A DNA stretch of 64,000 bases from an uncultured bacterium (GTDB lineage: Bacteria > Bacillota > Clostridia > Lachnospirales > Lachnospiraceae): positions 1 through 64,000 of the forward strand of contig CAMWUN010000005.1 of NCBI GenBank assembly GCA_947177425.1, written 5' to 3'. Below, in pieces: positions 33,647 to 43,849 of the stretch. A model generated the notes under the pieces. That model was not told the origin of the DNA. It worked only from the letters and a program-made list of their open reading frames with translations, and did not search any database. Each line of letters opens with the position of its first letter. Positions within the stretch are counted from its first letter, which is position 1. Both the position numbers and the translations under genes were made by a program.

Positions 33647-33724
33647 TCCCCGTACCTCCCAAAGTTTAAACAATTATATCAAATTCTTTTTTCTTTATCT
33701 ACTGCCAATTTGCATGGACATCAA

Positions 33725-33775
33725 AAAGAGCCAGTAACCTGCATTTCCATGCACTTACCGGCTCTTTTACTCTCT
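33725..33775 (-). terminator. Intrinsic terminator of small-protein locus copy 1
   Basis: AAAAAGAGCCAGTAA...TTACCGGCTCTTTT; counterpart at 42432-42478. Confidence 0.75.
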
Positions 33776-33812
33776 AAAATTATTCTTTTGTTCCTCCATA
33801 CCGCTTATCAGC

Positions 33813-33998
33813 CTATTTCTTTAACATCTGATAAACAAGGGCTGTATTGGTATTTCCCGACATTGCAAGCATGCCGCATGCGATTTCCGCACCATGCTCT
33901 TCCATTGTTGTCCTGAAATATTTTGCAATTCTCTCCTTAAGGGATACTCTGTTTCTGCCTTCTGTATAGGCTTTTCCTTTTAATGCTATTGTACTCAT
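33813..33998 (-). CDS. 61-aa small protein of unknown function, copy 1
   Basis: MSTIALKGKAYTEGRNRVSLKERIAKYFRTTMEEHGAEIACGMLAMSGNTNTALVYQMLKK; 58/61 identical to 42522-42707; RBS-like agagagg upstream. Confidence 0.8.
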   Translation of the reverse strand: MSTIALKGKAYTEGRNRVSLKERIAKYFRTTMEEHGAEIACGMLAMSGNTNTALVYQMLKK

Positions 33999-34018
33999 AA
34001 CTTAACCTCTCTTTCTTT

Positions 34019-34058
34019 TTAACATAAGGATGGCTGGCACAGCCTGGCATCCGTTGTT
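34019..34058 (+). repeat. Hairpin-forming intergenic repeat
   Basis: TTAACATAAGGATGGCTGGCACAGCCTGGCATCCGTTGTT; compare 20038-20088 (minus) and the shortened copy at 42727. Confidence 0.7.
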
Positions 34059-34087
34059 ACAATAAGTTAAACCGCGAAGCATGGCAG
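34059..34087 (+). repeat. 29-bp dispersed repeat
   Basis: ACAATAAGTTAAACCGCGAAGCATGGCAG. Confidence 0.6.
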
Positions 34088-34159
34088 CGTTTGCTGCTGT
34101 TTTGCTTTCGCTTTACATGTTATATCTTACAGCTTAAAAAAGAGGAATTCTAGGTTGGA

Positions 34160-34190
34160 TTTTGACTCTTTTTAAGGCAATATTGACTTT
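34160..34190 (+). promoter_or_regulatory. 21-bp-period tandem TTTTGAC/TATTGAC motif
   Basis: TTTTGACTCTTTTTAAGGCAATATTGACTTT; matches 42836-42866 and 42361-42391 (minus). Confidence 0.65.
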
Positions 34191-34196
34191 TTATTT

Positions 34197-34225
34197 ACAA
34201 TAGACTGGCTTGCGAAACATGGCAG
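34197..34225 (+). repeat. 29-bp dispersed repeat
   Basis: ACAATAGACTGGCTTGCGAAACATGGCAG. Confidence 0.6.
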
Positions 34226-34338: not shown

Positions 34339-35178
34339 TTAGCCTTTTACAGCGCCAACCGTAAAGCTTTCCTGAACCTGCTTGCTCAGCATCAGATAAA
34401 TTACAACTGTCGGCAGTGTCGCGATTACCATGCCTGCGCCTATGATTCCCCAGTTCGTGGAATGCTCTCCCACAAAGGACATGATACCTACAGGCAGTGT
34501 CTTGTATTCCGCGCTGTCCACAAATGTGTTTGCAAACAGCAGTTCATTCCATGTATTTAAAAACGTAAAGATACATGCCGTGGCAATTCCGGGCTTTATC
34601 ATAGGGAAAATAATCCTGAAAAACATGGAAAATATATTACAGCCGTCTATACATGCGGCTTCTTCAATTTCTCTGGGCAGGGATTTGAAGAATCCTCCTA
34701 AAATCATAACGCTCATGGGCATTGCAAAAGTGATGTAGGGGAGAAGCAGACCTAAATATCCTCTTCTTACTCCCATCATGTCAAGTCCCTGGAACAGGGG
34801 AAGCAAAGTAGCCTGCACGGGAATCATAATGCCAAGACTGAAAATTACAGCAACAATCCCCTTTGCTTTCCAGTACATTCTGTTAATTGCATATGCCGCC
34901 ATTGCTGACAGCAGGGTTGCGATAACTACGGTCAGTACAGCATACAAAACCGAATTCAGCAGATAATGCAGAATATTTCCTCCCATTAAGGCTTTTGAAT
35001 AGTTTTCCAGGCGCCATACTTTTGGCAGGCCCATCAAATTGTTTGAATCGAATATCTCCGTATTACTTTTAAAGGAAAATGTTATGAGCCAGTAAAAAGG
35101 AAAGATCTGGATAAAGGTAAACGCCAGCAAAAACACGTATATCAAAACTCTCTTGATTTTATTAAAATTTATTTCCAT
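34339..35178 (-). CDS. Carbohydrate ABC transporter permease (MalG/YesQ-like)
   Basis: Polytopic ORF with EEAACIDGCNIFSMFFRIIFPMIKP (EAA motif). Confidence 0.9.
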   Translation of the reverse strand: MEINFNKIKRVLIYVFLLAFTFIQIFPFYWLITFSFKSNTEIFDSNNLMGLPKVWRLENYSKALMGGNILHYLLNSVLYAVLTVVIATLLSAMAAYAINRMYWKAKGIVAVIFSLGIMIPVQATLLPLFQGLDMMGVRRGYLGLLLPYITFAMPMSVMILGGFFKSLPREIEEAACIDGCNIFSMFFRIIFPMIKPGIATACIFTFLNTWNELLFANTFVDSAEYKTLPVGIMSFVGEHSTNWGIIGAGMVIATLPTVVIYLMLSKQVQESFTVGAVKG

Positions 35179-35190
35179 ACCCCTCTCCTT

Positions 35191-36078
35191 TTAAATTGCC
35201 GATGCATTTTCTTCAGATTTTTTAAAGATACAATTCAGCAGAAAACTGAACAGCAGACACTCAAACACGATGAAAAACGCCTGAGCGCTGCCATAACCGT
35301 ACCGACACTTGACGAAAAGGTTATCATACATCAAAGTTGCAGGAACTTCACTGGCATGATTGGGGCCGCCGCCAGTCATAACGTATACCAGATCAAATAC
35401 TCTGAGAGAACCGACCAGGGCAAACGTTGCACTGACTTTAATCGTGGGCATAAGCAGCGGGATGGTAATTTTCATTGCCGCCTTAAACCCGGTGGCACCG
35501 TCCAGTTTCGCCGCCTCATAATATTCAGGGGAAATATTCTTAACCCCTGCGTAGAGGATGACCATATGGTACCCGATGCTTTGCCAGACTGCCGGAATGA
35601 CAGTTGTCATATATGCGGTTTTTGAATTTACCAGCCATGCAATGTCATCTGTACAGCCAAAAAATCCCAATATTGCATTTAGAAGGCCGTCACTGTTAAA
35701 AATTTTACACCAGAGTTGCCCGATAACCATACTTGAAATAACCACAGGCAGGAAAAACACTGTCCTGTAAAATCCTTCTCCTTTTACCCCGTTTGCCAGC
35801 AAAATAGCAAGCAGCAGCGCAATTGGGAGCTGCACAAACAAAGAACCAGCCGCCAGTATGAACGAATTTAAAATAGATTTCAGAAAATAAGCGTCTGCCG
35901 CAAACAAATCAATATAATTCTGCAAGCCTATAAAAGTCTTCTTTCCAATGCCATCGTAATCAAACAATCCATAATATCCAGTAATAAACAGTGGAACAAC
36001 TCCCATGGCAATAAACAAAATCAATGCCGGCGCAACAAAAATCGCTATGTACAACTTATTACTCAATAATCTCTTCAT
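35191..36078 (-). CDS. Carbohydrate ABC transporter permease (MalF/UgpA-like)
   Basis: Polytopic ORF with EYYEAAKLDGATGFKAAMKITIPLL. Confidence 0.9.
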   Translation of the reverse strand: MKRLLSNKLYIAIFVAPALILFIAMGVVPLFITGYYGLFDYDGIGKKTFIGLQNYIDLFAADAYFLKSILNSFILAAGSLFVQLPIALLLAILLANGVKGEGFYRTVFFLPVVISSMVIGQLWCKIFNSDGLLNAILGFFGCTDDIAWLVNSKTAYMTTVIPAVWQSIGYHMVILYAGVKNISPEYYEAAKLDGATGFKAAMKITIPLLMPTIKVSATFALVGSLRVFDLVYVMTGGGPNHASEVPATLMYDNLFVKCRYGYGSAQAFFIVFECLLFSFLLNCIFKKSEENASAI

Positions 36079-36082
36079 AGCA

Positions 36083-37369
36083 TTACTCCTGTGTACTGAT
36101 TGCTTCCTGATGTGCCTTCATAAAACTTTCAGCGCTTGCGCCCTCAACCAGCAGAGACTGTGCCTGTTCCAGATGGACAGCCGTTGCGTTTGCATCCAGA
36201 ATGCCGTCCCAGTTTTGAATTCCTGTTTCCACGCTGTTATACAGATTGTATAAGGATACAAATGTCGGGGAAAGAGCAGACTCATCAACGTCTACATTCC
36301 AGCAGGGAAATCCCGAACCAATTTCAAGCGCCTTACTGCCCATCTGTTCTGCAATATAGATTGCAAAGTCTGCTGCCTCTGCCGGTGTATCCGTGTTTTT
36401 GTTTACAAAGAAGGATGCGCTTGCACCGCCTGCATAATCGGTTCTGCTCTGTCCTTCCGAAACGACGGGGAAAGTGATTACTTCCACATCCGTTACCACG
36501 CTTTCTTCTGTATTATCAATCGTACCTGCAAACCAGCTTCCATCCAACTGCATGGCAGCCTTTCCGTTTAAGAAATCTGCTGTCGCTTCCGGTTCTCCAT
36601 CCTCTAAGGGATTCTTTCCGAAAATGCCTTTCTGGTTCAATTCGATTACTTTTTCAGCAGCCCTTTTAAACCCTTCATTGGTAAATGCAGTCTCCCCAAG
36701 CAAAGCTGCCTGTACTTCCCCGGCGCCCACTTCCCTAAGGGCAACGGCTTCATACAAAGCGCCTGCAAGCCAGGAATCTTTTGCACCAATCACCAGCGGC
36801 GTAACCCCGTCCAGCGTCTGAAGCTTTTCTCCTGCTGCAATCAGTTCATCATAAGTGGAAGGGATTTCTGCCCCAGCCTCCTCAAACAGTGTCTTATTGC
36901 AAAACAGACACATCATATAGCTGTCGATTGGAAGTGCATATAAATCATCTCCAAACTCAAAAGCGCTTGTGGAGCCTTCTTTTACCCTGCTCATAACCTC
37001 ATCTGTCACATAATCATTCAGAGGTAATACTTTATCTGCATTAACCAGTTGTTTCAGTTTGCCGGGGGACCAGTAATAAAAGACGTCTATGCCCGATGCG
37101 CTGCTTGCAAATTCAGTGGAAATCTTGGTCTTGTAAGATTCCGTATCCAGTCCGTGCAGTTCAATCTTGATATTCTCATGCTCACTTTCATAATTGTCTA
37201 CTGCTGCCAGAAATGTCTTTGTCTGCTCACTTTCCGGATCTGTGAACTGGTGCCATACATCCAGTACCACTTCATCGCTTTCCTGCTTTGCCGCCGGGGA
37301 ACATGCCGATACGCCAGTCAGAACTGCAATACTCATGCACACTGCCGCAACCTTTTTCCAATTTTTCAT
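36083..37369 (-). CDS. ABC transporter extracellular sugar-binding lipoprotein
   Basis: Lipobox SIAVLTGVSACS; SBP-like DVWHQFTDPESEQTKTF. Confidence 0.9.
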   Translation of the reverse strand: MKNWKKVAAVCMSIAVLTGVSACSPAAKQESDEVVLDVWHQFTDPESEQTKTFLAAVDNYESEHENIKIELHGLDTESYKTKISTEFASSASGIDVFYYWSPGKLKQLVNADKVLPLNDYVTDEVMSRVKEGSTSAFEFGDDLYALPIDSYMMCLFCNKTLFEEAGAEIPSTYDELIAAGEKLQTLDGVTPLVIGAKDSWLAGALYEAVALREVGAGEVQAALLGETAFTNEGFKRAAEKVIELNQKGIFGKNPLEDGEPEATADFLNGKAAMQLDGSWFAGTIDNTEESVVTDVEVITFPVVSEGQSRTDYAGGASASFFVNKNTDTPAEAADFAIYIAEQMGSKALEIGSGFPCWNVDVDESALSPTFVSLYNLYNSVETGIQNWDGILDANATAVHLEQAQSLLVEGASAESFMKAHQEAISTQE

Positions 37370-37458: not shown

Positions 37459-39015
37459 TTATTCACCTAAAAGGTTGCGATTTTTACTTTTGTACTGATT
37501 GACCGTTTTCCCTGTATATTTTTTAAAGCATGTTCCAAAGTAATGTGCATCCGGCATGCCCACCGCCGCCGCCACCTCATACACCTTTAAATGCGTATTA
37601 TCAAACAGATCCATGCTTTTTTCCATGCGCTTTCTCATAATATATTTCGTCAGGCTTTCCCCTGTGACCTGTTTGAATATACGGCTGAGATAGCTGGAAT
37701 TTACAAACAAATCAGAAGCAATCCTGTTCAGGGACAATCCCTCTTTTCCAAGATTTTCTGCAATATACTCCTGGGCTGTTAAAACAATACTGTTCCCCAC
37801 ATGATTTTCAGAAATGATTTCAATCACTTTTTCAATAAAAGAATAAAATATTCTGCAGAATTCATGCAGGGTGTTTATATTGGAAATTGCCGTAAACAGT
37901 TCCATCTGCTCCGAATCATCCAGATATTTATTGTATTCTTTTAAGATAGACAAAGAATTATGCAGAATTAAGCCCCCCAGATTCCGCAGTTGGGAAATCA
38001 TCATCGGTCCGTCATAGACATATTTTTTCAAATACTGGTCAATGATTGCAACAGCCGCTTCCAGATCACCGCCCTTTACTGCAATTCTGTATTCGTCAAA
38101 ATTTACCGGGCAGGAGCGCTTGATATGCAGCATAAGGCCAATATAGTCCTCATAAAAAATCAGTATTTTGCTCTTATCCCTGATGATGTTCAGCGCCGCT
38201 TCCTCACATTCGGAAAGCATTCTGGTACAGTCTGTAATGCCCTTGCAGCAGTGGCTGACGGACATCACACGGATACTGTCATTGTTTACTTTTGTCATCT
38301 TTAAGAATGCAAGTTCAATCTCTTCCTTGATATTTTCTTTTTCTTCAATTATAAAGAAAATAATATCTTTATCCAGAAAAGTATACCAATATCTCCCGCC
38401 TGTCATGCTGTTCATGACTTCCAGGACCGATGATGTGAAAATCTTTTCAACCCCGTCAACCTTTATAAAAATTCCCCGGACTTTATTCTTGTGGAGGAAT
38501 AGCATGTTATATGCAGATAGCTTTTCCTCCGCGTCTTTCTCACTGATATCGCCCCTTACAATCCTGCGCACCAGTTCCTGGCAAAGAACAGGTAAATTTT
38601 CCTTCTGCTTTAATTCTTCTTTTTTGGATTTTAAAATTGCCTGTTTCGCTTTTTCGGCTGTCGCAATCAGTTCATCTGTCAAAATCGGCTTTAAAAGAAA
38701 ATCCTCCACCCCTATATGAATTGCTTCTCTGGCATATTCAAATTCACGATAACCTGTCACAATGACTATATGGACAGACGGATAAGCTTCTCTGATTCTT
38801 TTACTTAATTCCAGCCCGTCCATCATTGGCATATTGATATCCGTATAAACAAGATCCGGAAGTTCCCTTTCCATTATCTTCAAAGCCTCTGCCGCAGACT
38901 GGACAGTTGCCATGATACGGAATCCATGCCTGTCCCATTCAACACTTTTTGCCATCAATATACCTTCATATTTTTCATCATCTATGATCAATATGCTAAT
39001 GATATCCTTCTCCAT
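37459..39015 (-). CDS. Response regulator, AraC-type output (YesN-like)
   Basis: N-terminal receiver (LVYTDINMPMMDGLEL, LLKPI), C-terminal AraC HTH. Confidence 0.9.
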   Translation of the reverse strand: MEKDIISILIIDDEKYEGILMAKSVEWDRHGFRIMATVQSAAEALKIMERELPDLVYTDINMPMMDGLELSKRIREAYPSVHIVIVTGYREFEYAREAIHIGVEDFLLKPILTDELIATAEKAKQAILKSKKEELKQKENLPVLCQELVRRIVRGDISEKDAEEKLSAYNMLFLHKNKVRGIFIKVDGVEKIFTSSVLEVMNSMTGGRYWYTFLDKDIIFFIIEEKENIKEEIELAFLKMTKVNNDSIRVMSVSHCCKGITDCTRMLSECEEAALNIIRDKSKILIFYEDYIGLMLHIKRSCPVNFDEYRIAVKGGDLEAAVAIIDQYLKKYVYDGPMMISQLRNLGGLILHNSLSILKEYNKYLDDSEQMELFTAISNINTLHEFCRIFYSFIEKVIEIISENHVGNSIVLTAQEYIAENLGKEGLSLNRIASDLFVNSSYLSRIFKQVTGESLTKYIMRKRMEKSMDLFDNTHLKVYEVAAAVGMPDAHYFGTCFKKYTGKTVNQYKSKNRNLLGE

Positions 39016-40777
39016 CCTTTTCCTCTTTCTTACACGGAATTCTTACTTTAATCTCGGTTTCTTTTCCAAAATCACTGTAGATACTCAAAGCATCTTCAAT
39101 TCCGTAGAAAAGTTCTATCCGCTGTTTGACACTGTAAATACCAAATCCTGATTTCCTTGTCCTGTACTCTCCCCTTAATATTTTATCTATCTTATCCCGC
39201 TCAATACCTGCCCCATTATCCCATACAGAAAATTCAATCATTTCATCTCCCAATGCCTTTACAGATATTCTTAATTCTCCCGCGCACTCTTTCTGGCGCA
39301 TACCGTGGTGAATGGCGTTTTCCACCAGCGGCTGCAGGATAAGCTTTAAAATCAAAACCTCCTGTACTTTCTCATCAACATCGTATGTTACCCGGATATC
39401 CCCATCGTAGCGGATATTTATAATTGTTATATAGCTTTTTATGATATCCAGTTCCTCCCAGACAAAAAGCATTTGCCGTCCGCTGTTTAAACTGTTCCGG
39501 TAAAACCGGCCAAGCGCCTGTGTCATCTGAAAGCTTTTTTTCTGATCTCCAATCAGCGTCAGTCCGCTGATTGCATCCAGTGTGTTATATAAAAAATGAG
39601 GGCTTATCTGTTCCAGTATCAAATTTAGTTCGTTTTCCCGAAGCAGCTTTTCTTTCTGTTTTGTCTGCTCCAGTAACCCCCGTATGGAATGAAGCATACC
39701 ATTATAGGCACGCTTTAAGTTGCTGATTTCATCTTCACATCCTTCTTCTATAGCCATATCCTCCGGTATGGAATCTGCAGATGTCATCTGCTCCTCCATT
39801 TTCTGAATCGGCCAGCTCAGCACATAGGAAATATAGAACCAGCACAAAATAAGCAGAAGCACATTAAAGCTAAGTACAAACAAAGTCTGCCCATATCCGG
39901 CGGACACGGCAAAGCTGTCTAAAGGTATCTTGGCGACAATATTCCAGCCCTCTACCACGGAAGAAATCTTTTTATATACCGCGGAATTCTTTCCGGCTTT
40001 TACAATTTTTACCTCATCTTCGGCCAGACTTAAGATAATATCTTTATCTGTTTTATATTGCCCACTGTCTTCTGTTCCAAAAATCAGTTCATCACCCTGC
40101 AAAATATAAAAACCGGAATTCAAATTCTCACCAACTGTTGAAAAGCTGTTGCGAATCGTCTTTTCATCAATATTCACCATAAGAATCCCAAGCTTTGAAT
40201 AGTCAGTCTTCTTTTTTATCAGCTTTATCATAGACAAAACATTTCTGTTCTGGCTTTTATAGCTGACCATGCCTCCTCCATCCGTTTCAAATATCCAATT
40301 GCCGTCCAAATCAAGCACCCTGTCATACCAGTATGCCTCCTCAACCGGAATATTGTTTTTAAAGACCACCTCATCTCTGTTACAGCTATATACATTCCCT
40401 AAATTGTCATAGAATATAATAGACGATATATAGTCGCCGGCCAGCATAATATTAACCAGACAGTCCTGTAAGTCTGATCGTGTTTCCACAGTCAGGTTTC
40501 CCTTTGATATTTCATCCAGTGTATCCTGAAACATTTTGCTCCAGAAAACAGCATAAGTATCCTGATTAACATGCTCAATCATCAGATTCATATTGTTATC
40601 AATCGCAAGCAATGTCTGGGTTGTCATTTCCCCAATCTGGTTCAGCATGGCTTTTTTGTTATTGTAGACCACAGCCGCAATGGATACCAGGGACGTGGCT
40701 ATAATGCATGTGACGAACAATCCCCACAGCTTTGTTTTAATCTTCACTTTCTTCCAGGCAATTCTATTCAATCTCAT
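38996..40777 (-). CDS. Sensor histidine kinase (YesM/LytS-like)
   Basis: TM region, cache-like sensor, EQISPHFLYNTLDAI, NGAGIERDKIDKIL; start trimmed to MRLNRIAWKK to clear the upstream CDS. Confidence 0.9.
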   Translation of the reverse strand: MRLNRIAWKKVKIKTKLWGLFVTCIIATSLVSIAAVVYNNKKAMLNQIGEMTTQTLLAIDNNMNLMIEHVNQDTYAVFWSKMFQDTLDEISKGNLTVETRSDLQDCLVNIMLAGDYISSIIFYDNLGNVYSCNRDEVVFKNNIPVEEAYWYDRVLDLDGNWIFETDGGGMVSYKSQNRNVLSMIKLIKKKTDYSKLGILMVNIDEKTIRNSFSTVGENLNSGFYILQGDELIFGTEDSGQYKTDKDIILSLAEDEVKIVKAGKNSAVYKKISSVVEGWNIVAKIPLDSFAVSAGYGQTLFVLSFNVLLLILCWFYISYVLSWPIQKMEEQMTSADSIPEDMAIEEGCEDEISNLKRAYNGMLHSIRGLLEQTKQKEKLLRENELNLILEQISPHFLYNTLDAISGLTLIGDQKKSFQMTQALGRFYRNSLNSGRQMLFVWEELDIIKSYITIINIRYDGDIRVTYDVDEKVQEVLILKLILQPLVENAIHHGMRQKECAGELRISVKALGDEMIEFSVWDNGAGIERDKIDKILRGEYRTRKSGFGIYSVKQRIELFYGIEDALSIYSDFGKETEIKVRIPCKKEEKDGEGYH

Positions 40778-40785
40778 GGCTGTTT

Positions 40786-42252
40786 TTATTTTAGCTTGAT
40801 TAATGCGACTCCATGTTCCGGAAGGCAGAATTCCAAGCTTATCCCATTCTCTGTTTTTGTTACACATAGCGTTTCTTCCTGAACAAAAGATGCTCTTTTT
40901 AAACTCTTTATCTGCTCTGTATCCGGATAAACCGGTGAACCCATTTTCTCCCACTCGCTTCTTGCATTTGCATGGGCATCATCAATTCTCTGAATGGAGG
41001 CAGAAACTACTGAAATATTCTTTATGTCAATTTTTATGTTTTCTGCTTTTATCGGCTTTCCAGGCATCTCATGATTATATGCAATAATACACATTTTTTC
41101 GTCCCTGCCGCTGGCTGCAAAAACACCTGCTGTTCCCTGCTCGGCTTCCTTCTGGTACTGCCGGCTGCCCAACTGATGCATCAATTCCAGGGCACGATAG
41201 GCAGGTTTGGGAATTCCATGGATAGTCTGCAGTCCAAACCCGCCGCGAAATTCTCCCGGCGCCTGCCCATGCTCCTCAAAAATGTCCGAAAATGTCCAAA
41301 AAGAGTATATATCAGCATATCCATAGTTATCAAGCAAAGTCTTTACCATCAATGCTGAACTGTATGAGGTGTCATGGACTGCATCCCCTTCGTTGGCGGA
41401 TGTGTTCCATTCCGTATAGTATAGCGGCAGTTCTCCTGCCTCAGCCTTTGCTTTTTTCGCCATTCTTGTAAGAATTCCTCTTCTGTCTACTTCCCCACCG
41501 GTGTCCCTTTTTTCCTTTTGGATAAAATCATCCAGGTTCATATCCCCGTTCCAGTTAGGATCATCGGTCGGATAATGATGCGTTGAAATGAAATCTATAG
41601 GCACATGATTCTTTTTGCAATATTCAATTATATCCAAAATCCATGCATTATTTGCAGTAGAGGGACCTCCTGTTCTTAATCCGGCATCAACAGATTTTAT
41701 TGCCCTTACTGTATGTTCATATAAAGTAAAATAATCTTCCTGATTCCCAGCAAAAAAGAACTTAAGGTTTGGCTCATTCCAAACTTCAAAATACCATTTT
41801 TGCACCTCTTCCACGCCATAACGTTCCACTAGATGCTGGATAAATGTGACGATAAAGGAATCCCAGAGCTGAAAATCCTTTGGCATGGTAACATTTCCTT
41901 TATAATGAAAGCACGTTTGCTCTCCGGACGCAAAAGGCGATGGCATGAAGCTAATCTCAATAAACGGCCGCATATCTATACTTAACAGAAAATCAATAAT
42001 ATTATCTATATTTACAAAATTGTATTCCAGACCCCCATGCTCTTTTTCAAAAACCACACTCATATCATCATTCAAAATTCCGTGAAAACGCACATATTGA
42101 AATCCAACATCCTCTTTCACCTTTTTCAATTGATTTCGGTAATCCTCTCTTAACGCTGTATAGCCATGGCATGACCCGACACACTTTTCCCAATAATGTT
42201 CAAAATCTTTCGTTGATGCAGCAGCATCCAGATGAAACTGTAAATGACCCAT
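40786..42252 (-). CDS. Glycoside hydrolase family 39 (beta-xylosidase-like)
   Basis: YFEVWNEPNLKFFFAGNQEDYF, PLYYTEWNTSANEGD; RBS ggagg before ATG 42252. Confidence 0.88.
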   Translation of the reverse strand: MGHLQFHLDAAASTKDFEHYWEKCVGSCHGYTALREDYRNQLKKVKEDVGFQYVRFHGILNDDMSVVFEKEHGGLEYNFVNIDNIIDFLLSIDMRPFIEISFMPSPFASGEQTCFHYKGNVTMPKDFQLWDSFIVTFIQHLVERYGVEEVQKWYFEVWNEPNLKFFFAGNQEDYFTLYEHTVRAIKSVDAGLRTGGPSTANNAWILDIIEYCKKNHVPIDFISTHHYPTDDPNWNGDMNLDDFIQKEKRDTGGEVDRRGILTRMAKKAKAEAGELPLYYTEWNTSANEGDAVHDTSYSSALMVKTLLDNYGYADIYSFWTFSDIFEEHGQAPGEFRGGFGLQTIHGIPKPAYRALELMHQLGSRQYQKEAEQGTAGVFAASGRDEKMCIIAYNHEMPGKPIKAENIKIDIKNISVVSASIQRIDDAHANARSEWEKMGSPVYPDTEQIKSLKRASFVQEETLCVTKTENGISLEFCLPEHGVALIKLK

Positions 42253-42360
42253 TTCGATTTCCTCCAAATTAAAAATATGATTCCATCTTACATGATTTCG
42301 TAATGATGATTAAATTATTTCTATCATCTGCGTTTATCCAAATCAATACGACCATTTTAT

Positions 42361-42391
42361 AAAGTCAAAATTGCAACATAAAATGTCAAAA
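42361..42391 (-). promoter_or_regulatory. 21-bp-period tandem TTTTGAC motif upstream of GH39
   Basis: Minus strand TTTTGACATTTTATGTTGCAATTTTGACTTT. Confidence 0.6.
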
Positions 42392-42402
42392 CTACACACT
42401 CC

Positions 42403-42431
42403 CTGCCATATTTCGCGGTCCAGCTTATTGT
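42403..42431 (-). repeat. 29-bp dispersed repeat
   Basis: Minus strand ACAATAAGCTGGACCGCGAAATATGGCAG. Confidence 0.6.
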
Positions 42432-42478
42432 AAAAAGAGCCAGTAACCTGCATTTCCATGCGTTTACTGGCTCTTTTA
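42432..42478 (-). terminator. Intrinsic terminator of small-protein locus copy 2
   Basis: AAAAAGAGCCAGTAA-cctGCATTTCCATGCgt-TTACTGGCTCTTTT. Confidence 0.78.
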
Positions 42479-42521
42479 TTCCCGAAAGTCATTCTTTTGT
42501 TTTTCCATACCGCTTATCAGC

Positions 42522-42707
42522 CTATTTCTTTAGCATCTGATAAACAAGGGCTGCATTGGTATTCCCTGACATTGCAAGCATACCGCAAGCGATTTCCGCA
42601 CCATACTCTTCCATTGTTGTCCTGAAATATTCTGCGATTCTCTCCTTAAGGGATACTCTGTTTCTGCCTTCTGTGTAGGCTTTTCCTTTTAAAGCTATTG
42701 TACTCAT
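42522..42707 (-). CDS. 61-aa small protein of unknown function, copy 2
   Basis: MSTIALKGKAYTEGRNRVSLKERIAEYFRTTMEEYGAEIACGMLAMSGNTNAALVYQMLKK. Confidence 0.8.
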   Translation of the reverse strand: MSTIALKGKAYTEGRNRVSLKERIAEYFRTTMEEYGAEIACGMLAMSGNTNAALVYQMLKK

Positions 42708-42835
42708 AACTTAACCTCTCTTTCTTTTTAACATCAGGATGGCTGGCATCCTTTGTCACAATAAGCTGTTTTTGTTTTCGCTTTCGCTTTACATGTTATA
42801 TCTTACAGCTTAAAAGAGAGGAATTCTAGGTTAGA

Positions 42836-42866
42836 TTTTGACTCTTTTTAAGGCGATATTGACTTT
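42836..42866 (+). promoter_or_regulatory. 21-bp-period tandem TTTTGAC/TATTGAC motif
   Basis: TTTTGACTCTTTTTAAGGCGATATTGACTTT. Confidence 0.65.
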
Positions 42867-43000
42867 TCATTTCACTTTTGCTAAATTAAAATAACAGTCA
42901 GCGTACCACTCTGCCGCCAGTTGCTGCTTCTTACATCCGGCATACTGAATAACAACTAACAATAAAAAATATTTAACATCTTTTAAGCAGGAGACACTTT

Positions 43001-43849
43001 ATGGAAAACTCATACTATGCAGCAGCAAGCCCCTTGTCCACGGGAATATCCATTGCATACACCACCGCTCCCGGCGGTTATTTTCCCCTGCACTGGCATG
43101 AAGAACTGGAAATCCTGTATCCCCTAAACGGTGCGGCGGATATCACCATTGAAGGGAAAAATTTCCGTCTTTTGAACAAACATATGCTTGTTGTGGAATC
43201 CCGCAAGGTACACAGCACTTACACTTATGACGAACTCTCTATGTTCGTCTGTATTCATGTATCCAAAAAGCATATCCGTCAGTATTTCCCGGAAATAGAC
43301 TCTTATCAGATTCTCTGTACCCCGGAGGACGCATCCGACGAACTGTTTCCCTTATACCGGAGCGCCTGCGAACTGCTAGAAGCTCTGACAAGACTGTATA
43401 TGGAGGAGCCGCCCACTTACCGCATGGAAGCCGAAGGGATTGTGCTTCAGATCGTATCCCGCTTAATCCGCTTTTTTTCCGTAAAAAAGCCCCAGCCATA
43501 CCATGGCAGCGACACCCCTGCAATGGAACGCATCCGGGATGTCATCACCTATGTGGAGGAACATTTCAGGGAACCTGTTGCCCTGGACGATGCTGCCAGC
43601 CTGTTAGGTCTGGGCAGGGAGTATTTCTGCCGCTTTTTTAAGAAAAATATGGGCATGACCTTTTTAAACTATTTAAATGAGGTCAGACTGGCTCATGCTT
43701 ATGCTGATTTGTTAAATACAAATGCCCCCATTTCCGAAGTCATGGAGGCAAATGGTTTTACAAACCAGAAACTGTTTAATTCTTCTTTTAAAGCGCTCTA
43801 TGGATGCACGCCTTCATCCATCCGCCGGGAGCATTCCAATGCAGAATAA
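43001..43849 (+). CDS. AraC family transcriptional regulator
   Basis: N-terminal cupin (HWHEELEILYPLNG), C-terminal AraC HTH. Confidence 0.88.
   Translation: MENSYYAAASPLSTGISIAYTTAPGGYFPLHWHEELEILYPLNGAADITIEGKNFRLLNKHMLVVESRKVHSTYTYDELSMFVCIHVSKKHIRQYFPEIDSYQILCTPEDASDELFPLYRSACELLEALTRLYMEEPPTYRMEAEGIVLQIVSRLIRFFSVKKPQPYHGSDTPAMERIRDVITYVEEHFREPVALDDAASLLGLGREYFCRFFKKNMGMTFLNYLNEVRLAHAYADLLNTNAPISEVMEANGFTNQKLFNSSFKALYGCTPSSIRREHSNAE

What the first reader, a model, noticed from the sequence alone, without database searches (positions are those of the whole stretch)
33725..34195. Duplicated orphan small-protein locus, copy 1
A ~470 bp module contains a 61-aa ORF (MSTIALKGKAYTEGRNRVSLKERIAKYFRTTMEEHGAEIACGMLAMSGNTNTALVYQMLKK), its terminator and ~190 bp of upstream DNA. 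It recurs at 42432-42867 with 58/61 identical residues and strongly conserved non-coding DNA. I recognise no domain. Conservation of protein, promoter and terminator together suggests a self-contained unit: a regulatory or signalling peptide, toxin-like protein or mobile cassette.
Basis: partly seen in the sequence, partly recalled or inferred. Interest (0 to 1): 0.72.

Follow-up and report, generated by a model that had tools for sequence, protein, structure and literature searches.

The report
AraC regulator with private small proteins
The duplicated 61-residue protein belongs to an undescribed family of very small proteins in gut Lachnospiraceae, which appear to be the only consistent targets of one dedicated AraC-type switch, so the finding defines an unexplored but directly testable signalling circuit rather than a stray duplication.

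Summary
Two 61-aa genes lie on the minus strand (33813-33998 and 42522-42707) inside blocks that are 86% identical (33723-34196 and 42432-42872). Each block ends exactly at an upstream DNA element and a downstream terminator. The coding sequence is under purifying selection (dN 0.02, dS 0.24).

A 27-bp operator (two half-sites 21 bp apart) precedes both copies and occurs nowhere else in the genome. An AraC-family gene (43001-43849) is divergent from copy 2.

The same operator precedes small ORFs (29-73 aa) across Lachnospiraceae, including Blautia, Mediterraneibacter, Dorea and Parablautia. Genomes with an AraC orthologue and genomes with operator plus small gene coincide: 10 of 10 against 0 of 28 in the genus, and 11 of 11 in a 397-genome family sample. 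No recognised operator drives an ordinary gene. The small proteins match nothing in Pfam, NCBIfam, PHROGs or the PDB.

Best explanation: a metal-cupin AraC activator switches on a private set of soluble, amphipathic-helix small proteins that act by binding a partner protein. The circuit is well supported; the molecular target is inferred. Closest analogues are ANR/Aar with AggR, and SgrT with SgrR; membership in either is not shown.

The parts
33813..33998 (-). small-protein gene copy 1 (61 aa, stop included)
   Evidence: dN/dS 0.09 against copy 2
34006..34012 (-). Shine-Dalgarno AGAGAGG of copy 1
   Evidence: sequence
34119..34129 (-). -10-like region (TAAGATATAAC) of copy 1, about 32-37 bp past the second half-site
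   Evidence: family alignment of 46 promoters
34162..34188 (-). operator AGTCAATATTGCCTTAAAAAGAGTCAA, two AGTCAA half-sites 21 bp apart; a fixed CT 8 bp further on lies at the -35 position
   Evidence: 0 expected in shuffles
33723..33769 (-). intrinsic terminator of copy 1
   Evidence: fold -25.9 kcal/mol, z -5.65
42522..42707 (-). small-protein gene copy 2 (61 aa, stop included), divergent from the AraC gene
42795..42805 (-). -10-like region (TAAGATATAAC) of copy 2
42838..42864 (-). operator AGTCAATATCGCCTTAAAAAGAGTCAA, in the intergenic region shared with the AraC gene
42432..42478 (-). intrinsic terminator of copy 2
   Evidence: fold -25.6 kcal/mol, z -5.5
43001..43849 (+). AraC-family regulator (282 aa): N-terminal cupin with intact HxH-E-H metal site, C-terminal double helix-turn-helix; predicted activator of both small genes
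   Evidence: Pfam HTH_18 3e-20, HTH_AraC, AraC_binding; alignment; AlphaFold2 pLDDT 85; co-occurrence

Best explanation
The 61-aa gene is the output of a dedicated regulatory circuit. An AraC-family activator with a metal-type cupin sensor (43001-43849) binds two GTCAA half-sites 21 bp apart, abutting the -35 position. On receiving its (unknown) ligand it turns on one to five small-protein genes per genome. One of these is usually divergent from the AraC gene; others, such as copy 1 here, sit elsewhere and are controlled in trans. The products are soluble, mildly basic 29-73-aa proteins built around one conserved amphipathic helix and a short second helix. They most likely act inside the cell by binding and modulating another protein, in the manner of SgrT, since no other target of the regulator was found. 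Shown computationally: family, operator, gene pairing, co-occurrence, purifying selection. Inferred: AraC as the factor that binds the operator, activation rather than repression, and protein binding as the mode of action.
For: Operator: only two matches (up to 3 mismatches) in the whole genome, both at the small genes; 0 expected in the window. Generality: across GTDB, 47 of 57 clostridial operator loci are followed by a small ORF against none convincing in 23 unrelated loci, and 19 loci have the AraC gene divergent. Ten further genomes hold one to five sites each, nearly all driving small ORFs. Co-occurrence: the AraC orthologue is in 10 of 38 genus genomes, the same 10 that hold operator plus small gene, even where the genes lie on different contigs (G007, G029, G020). 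In 397 family genomes, all 11 with convincing operators have the AraC homologue; three more distant homologues (36-38% identity) still have a diverged operator and a divergent small ORF. Promoter geometry: 46 non-redundant sites share GTCAA-N16-GTCAA-N8-CT with a -10 about 32 bp on. Protein level: median dN/dS 0.19; no stretch hydrophobic enough for a membrane helix (highest 17-residue mean 1.5); predicted helix 20-47, turn, helix 52-60. Sensor: H31, H33, E37 and H71 invariant in 22 regulators; the cupin aligns with metal cupins of quercetin dioxygenase.
Against: No binding, expression or phenotype data. The AlphaFold2 model of the small protein is of moderate confidence (pLDDT 71, pTM 0.37) and has no PDB match. 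Sequence classes differ so much (48-aa and 70-aa classes) that one shared function is not certain. Targets with weak operators may have been missed, so feedback on AraC is not excluded. Some AraC homologues (G389, G358) lack the arrangement, and some operators lack an intact ORF (L114, L259).
Confidence: 0.6

Rival explanations
1. ANR-like feedback: the small protein binds its own AraC activator and blocks it, making a negative feedback loop.
For: Same layout as ANR/Aar: 39-80 aa helical proteins, close to and divergent from an AraC activator (PMC4038620), binding the activator directly (PMC5570504). Regulator and small protein diverge together (r = 0.71 over 21 linked pairs), though linkage alone could give that.
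Against: Every recognised operator in the genome drives the small genes alone, so a pure feedback loop would control nothing else; one genome can carry several different small-protein classes for one AraC. No sequence link to ANR found.
Confidence: 0.2
2. Secreted signalling or antagonistic peptide: the small proteins are exported and sensed by neighbours or act on competitors.
For: Conserved N-terminal part and helix with variable C-terminal parts, multiple paralogues per genome, patchy distribution.
Against: No signal peptide-like hydrophobic N-terminus, no double-glycine leader, no conserved exporter, protease, modifying enzyme or immunity gene in neighbourhoods; whole sequences are under purifying selection.
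Confidence: 0.15
3. The transcript is the functional molecule (a regulatory RNA), alone or with the protein, as in SgrS/SgrT.
For: Short monocistronic unit with strong terminator; conserved initially transcribed sequence around GTAACAAGGAAAC in most members.
Against: Substitutions between copies fall mostly at third codon positions; dN/dS 0.19; no Rfam match; leader and terminator sequences differ between classes while the protein core is kept.
Confidence: 0.1
4. The operator is bound by another factor (for example a LytTR response regulator, which also uses half-sites about 21 bp apart) and the AraC neighbour is incidental.
For: Several small genes are not next to an AraC gene, including copy 1 here.
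Against: One-to-one co-occurrence with this AraC subfamily even for unlinked copies and across genera; 19 of 80 loci are divergent pairs with the operator between the genes.
Confidence: 0.07

Closest known systems
ANR (AraC negative regulator) family, e.g. Aar with AggR in enteroaggregative E. coli
   Same: Very small (39-80 aa), predicted helical protein encoded close to and divergently from an AraC-family activator that induces it (PMC4038620, PMC5570504).
   Different: ANR is reported from Gram-negative bacteria, has three helices and a conserved Cys; AggR controls a large virulence regulon, whereas here the small genes are the only recognised targets. Homology was not tested directly.
SgrR - SgrS/SgrT of enteric bacteria
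   Same: A transcription activator with an adjacent short gene encoding a roughly 40-aa protein, poorly conserved in sequence, in a conserved intergenic promoter context (PMC4021124).
   Different: SgrR is not an AraC-family protein (own knowledge) and also activates setA and alaC; SgrS is a dual-function RNA; SgrT inhibits PtsG. Here the protein is the conserved part and the target is unknown.
AraC-family sensors with an N-terminal cupin-like domain (AraC, BgaR, ToxT, Rns)
   Same: Domain order, double helix-turn-helix, 21-bp-spaced half-sites abutting -35; fold matches to ToxT, Rns, CsvR, BgaR.
   Different: Only 11-14% identity over the full length; invariant HxH-E-H metal-cupin residues in the sensor domain.

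Membership tests
AraC/XylS family (regulator at 43001-43849) | C-terminal double helix-turn-helix domain | tested here: met
   HTH_18 3.4e-20 and HTH_AraC 4.6e-13 above cut-offs; AlphaFold2 helices 173-279; matches to MarA, SoxS, AraC DNA-binding domains
AraC/XylS family (regulator at 43001-43849) | N-terminal cupin ligand-binding domain | tested here: met
   AraC_binding PF02311 25.9 bits against cut-off 21.1; strands 10-88 in model
AraC/XylS family (regulator at 43001-43849) | binds direct half-sites about 21 bp apart near -35 | tested here: inconclusive
   sites of that geometry are conserved and co-occur with the gene; binding itself was not measured
ANR (AraC negative regulators) | small (39-80 aa) helical protein near and divergent from an AraC activator | tested here: met
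   layout as in PMC4038620
ANR (AraC negative regulators) | sequence homology to Aar/ANR members | not tested
   no Pfam or NCBIfam match, but ANR sequences were not compared because the archetype lies on a virulence plasmid
ANR (AraC negative regulators) | three-helix architecture with oligomerisation | tested here: inconclusive
   model shows one long and one short helix plus weak N-terminal elements, pLDDT 71
ANR (AraC negative regulators) | binds and inhibits the AraC partner | not testable with these tools
   needs two-hybrid, pull-down or reporter assay
SgrR/SgrS/SgrT | SgrR-type activator | tested here: not met
   the regulator here is an AraC/cupin protein
SgrR/SgrS/SgrT | known SgrS RNA | tested here: not met
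   no Rfam match at E up to 1 other than a sub-threshold snoRNA hit
Phage or mobile-element cargo | present in viral contigs or with mobility genes | tested here: not met
   13 operator matches in IMG/VR lack the small gene; PHROG matches weak only

The most novel reading that the evidence does not exclude
A Lachnospiraceae-wide intercellular or host-directed signalling system in which an AraC metal-cupin regulator senses a gut compound and answers solely by releasing a lineage-specific set of small proteins, a peptide language not previously described in these dominant gut bacteria.
Probability: 0.15. Interest if true: 0.9.

Novelty: new variant of a known kind. Interest (0 to 1): 0.62.

Why it matters
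Most small proteins of gut bacteria have neither regulator nor family. Here one operator, one regulator and dozens of small proteins are tied together across a dominant gut family, so a single culturable member (for example Blautia hansenii or Mediterraneibacter glycyrrhizinilyticus) would let the inducing compound, the regulon and the target protein be found with standard tools. A transcription factor whose only recognised output is a set of proteins of about 40-70 residues would be unusual.

Tried and rejected
Known domains: Pfam, NCBIfam, PHROGs, PDB by sequence and by fold gave nothing credible; the Vts1 and 5-FTHF ligase hits of one member are below cut-off. Resemblance of the 48-aa class to the sporulation inhibitor Sda was noticed by eye and rejected: no Pfam match. 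AgrD-type autoinducer or bacteriocin: no leader, partner or transporter in neighbourhoods. LytTR regulator as binder: considered from half-site spacing, disfavoured by co-occurrence with AraC. Wider regulon with the bare GTCAA-N16-GTCAA pattern: 32 hits against 45 control hits, hence noise. Phage carriage: rejected. RNA families: none. Literature searches on AraC with small proteins in Lachnospiraceae or Firmicutes found no description; the library holds open-licence papers only. ANR sequences were not fetched, because the archetype sits on a virulence plasmid.

Full report
The observation. On the minus strand of the window lie two genes for nearly identical 61-residue proteins, 33813-33998 and 42522-42707. 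They share 58 of 61 residues and are the only copies in the genome. The duplicated block is 33723-34196 against 42432-42872 (410/475 positions identical including gaps), and similarity stops sharply at both ends. Each block holds, in transcription order, a 27-bp direct-repeat element, a -10-like region, a leader, a Shine-Dalgarno sequence, the ORF and a strong intrinsic terminator. The ORF is constrained: 11 nucleotide differences but only 3 residue changes, dN 0.021, dS 0.242.

Relatives. A search of 38 genomes of the genus found an 85% identical protein in G006 and shorter (43-57 aa) relatives in five other genomes. All share an upstream element whose consensus is AGTCAATATYGNCNTAAANARAGTCAA. 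Searching for the element rather than the protein found more small ORFs, too different to be found by sequence alone, including three copies of a 48-aa class around one AraC gene in G001. The genus includes Parablautia muri: G002 contig C137 and record NZ_QZDT01000033.1 have the same length and the same site.

The family. A scan of 397 Lachnospiraceae genomes and of GTDB representative genomes gave operator loci with small ORFs of 40-73 aa in Blautia hansenii, Mediterraneibacter, Dorea, Lachnoclostridium and many uncultured Lachnospiraceae. Twenty-three matches in unrelated phyla have none that resembles the family, which is the chance background. Classes include MSTIALKxxxY...SLKERxxKYFEENxxxIxCGLLxMNGNxNAYxxYxxLKK (52-66 aa), MRKFVEYFKKNQVEIALALY... 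(41 aa), MNRIAKYFKENQKEIMMALYSMN... (40 aa), MKNYLRTMVESYFENN... (48 aa) and a 70-aa class. The common core is one amphipathic helix. No member has a library match of note. Median dN/dS over 47 close pairs is 0.19 and never reaches 1.

The partner. In most genera one copy of the small gene is divergent from an AraC-family gene, with the operator between them. In the window this is 43001-43849, next to copy 2. Pfam confirms the double helix-turn-helix and the cupin domain. Across 22 such regulators H31, W32, H33, E37 and H71 are invariant, which fits the metal-binding cupin motif, and the profile aligns with quercetin dioxygenase cupins. AlphaFold2 gives a confident model (pLDDT 85) whose full-length neighbours are ToxT, Rns and CsvR.

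Co-occurrence. In the genus, 10 of 38 genomes have the AraC orthologue (E below 1e-90). Those same 10 have operator plus small gene, and the other 28 have neither, apart from chance 3-mismatch hits. In G007, G029 and G020 the two lie on different contigs, so close linkage alone cannot explain it. In the family sample, 16 genomes have the AraC protein at E below 1e-60. Eleven carry the operator by the strict pattern, three more (G185, G280, G383; 36-38% identity) carry a diverged operator with a divergent small ORF, and two (G389, G358) lack it. Of the eleven, ten have a small ORF read directly; in G360 the clean site lies at a contig edge, so its ORF could not be read, and the site beside its AraC gene is degenerate. 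Genomes are not phylogenetically independent, so no p-value is claimed.

The regulon. In the window's genome the operator (up to 3 mismatches) occurs twice, both at the small genes. In ten further genomes all convincing sites (one to five per genome) precede small ORFs, with at most one AraC neighbour; different classes can coexist in one genome, for example 41-, 40- and 72-aa genes in G442. Exceptions: L259, where the operator is next to AraC but no small ORF follows, and L114, where the promoter is followed by no intact ORF. No recognised site drives an ordinary enzyme or transporter gene. Weak sites cannot be excluded; the bare GTCAA-N16-GTCAA pattern is not enriched (32 against 45 control hits).

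Promoter anatomy. Aligning 46 non-redundant sites gives aaA.GTCAATATcGaCTTAAAA.aaGTCAAaaaa..acCTgttt, with the -10 most often 32 bp beyond the second TCAA. The fixed CT therefore falls at the -35 position, and the two half-sites, 21 bp apart, abut it. That is the geometry of an AraC-type activator contacting RNA polymerase from a site overlapping -35 (own knowledge of AraC at araBAD). Activation, and binding by this AraC, are inferences.

How the small protein may act. The proteins lack a membrane-spanning stretch, are mildly basic (median net charge +2) and have a strongly amphipathic helix. The model of copy 1 is a long helix (20-47), a turn and a short helix (52-60) at moderate confidence, without a PDB counterpart. 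There is no conserved exporter, immunity or modification gene nearby. A soluble protein that binds another protein is the simplest reading. Because the small genes are the only recognised targets, I favour an effector role (SgrT-like) over pure feedback on AraC (ANR-like), but both stay open.

Comparison. ANR proteins are 39-80 aa, helical, and close to and divergent from AraC activators (PMC4038620); Aar binds AggR directly (PMC5570504). SgrT is a 43-aa protein encoded next to its activator SgrR (PMC4021124). The present system works like these in outline but membership in either family is not shown. Literature searches found no description of this circuit, within an open-licence library.

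Verdict. Observation confirmed, interpretation partly right. The thing is a member of an undescribed small-protein family controlled by a dedicated AraC regulator. Circuit: about 0.9 likely. Effector acting by protein binding: about 0.5.

Noticed in passing
window 42364-42389 (+): GTCAAAATTGCAACATAAAATGTCAA, a third GTCAA-N16-GTCAA site, about 100 bp upstream of the GH39 gene (40786-42267, minus). It lacks the core of the small-gene operator; may be a site of another AraC or YesN regulator or chance.
   Followed up: partly
window 34054-34087, 34194-34225, 42403-42436: Three copies of a short imperfect repeat (CTGCCATGCTTCGCGGTTTAACTTATTGTAA-like) at the edges of or inside the duplicated blocks; similar sequence beside family members in L009 and L047. 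It may have mediated the duplication.
   Followed up: no
initially transcribed region of most family members, e.g. L004, L026, L129: A conserved GTAACAAGGAAAC-like sequence follows the -10 in nearly all classes; neither operator nor ribosome-binding site, unexplained.
   Followed up: no
G001 contig C28 (L047) and G144 contig C42 (L028, L049): Several copies of the 48-aa class of small gene, ending in conserved ...LLNVSPRFF or ...LLNVAPRAF, near one AraC gene.
   Followed up: partly
window 37459-40954: YesN/YesM-type two-component pair beside a sugar ABC transporter (34339-37369), between the two small-gene copies; no sign that it belongs to the circuit.
   Followed up: partly
L087 / L259 (genome G436) and G360: In this lineage the operator next to the AraC gene persists but no intact small ORF was found beside it; in G436 the small genes (67-aa class) are elsewhere.
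   Followed up: partly
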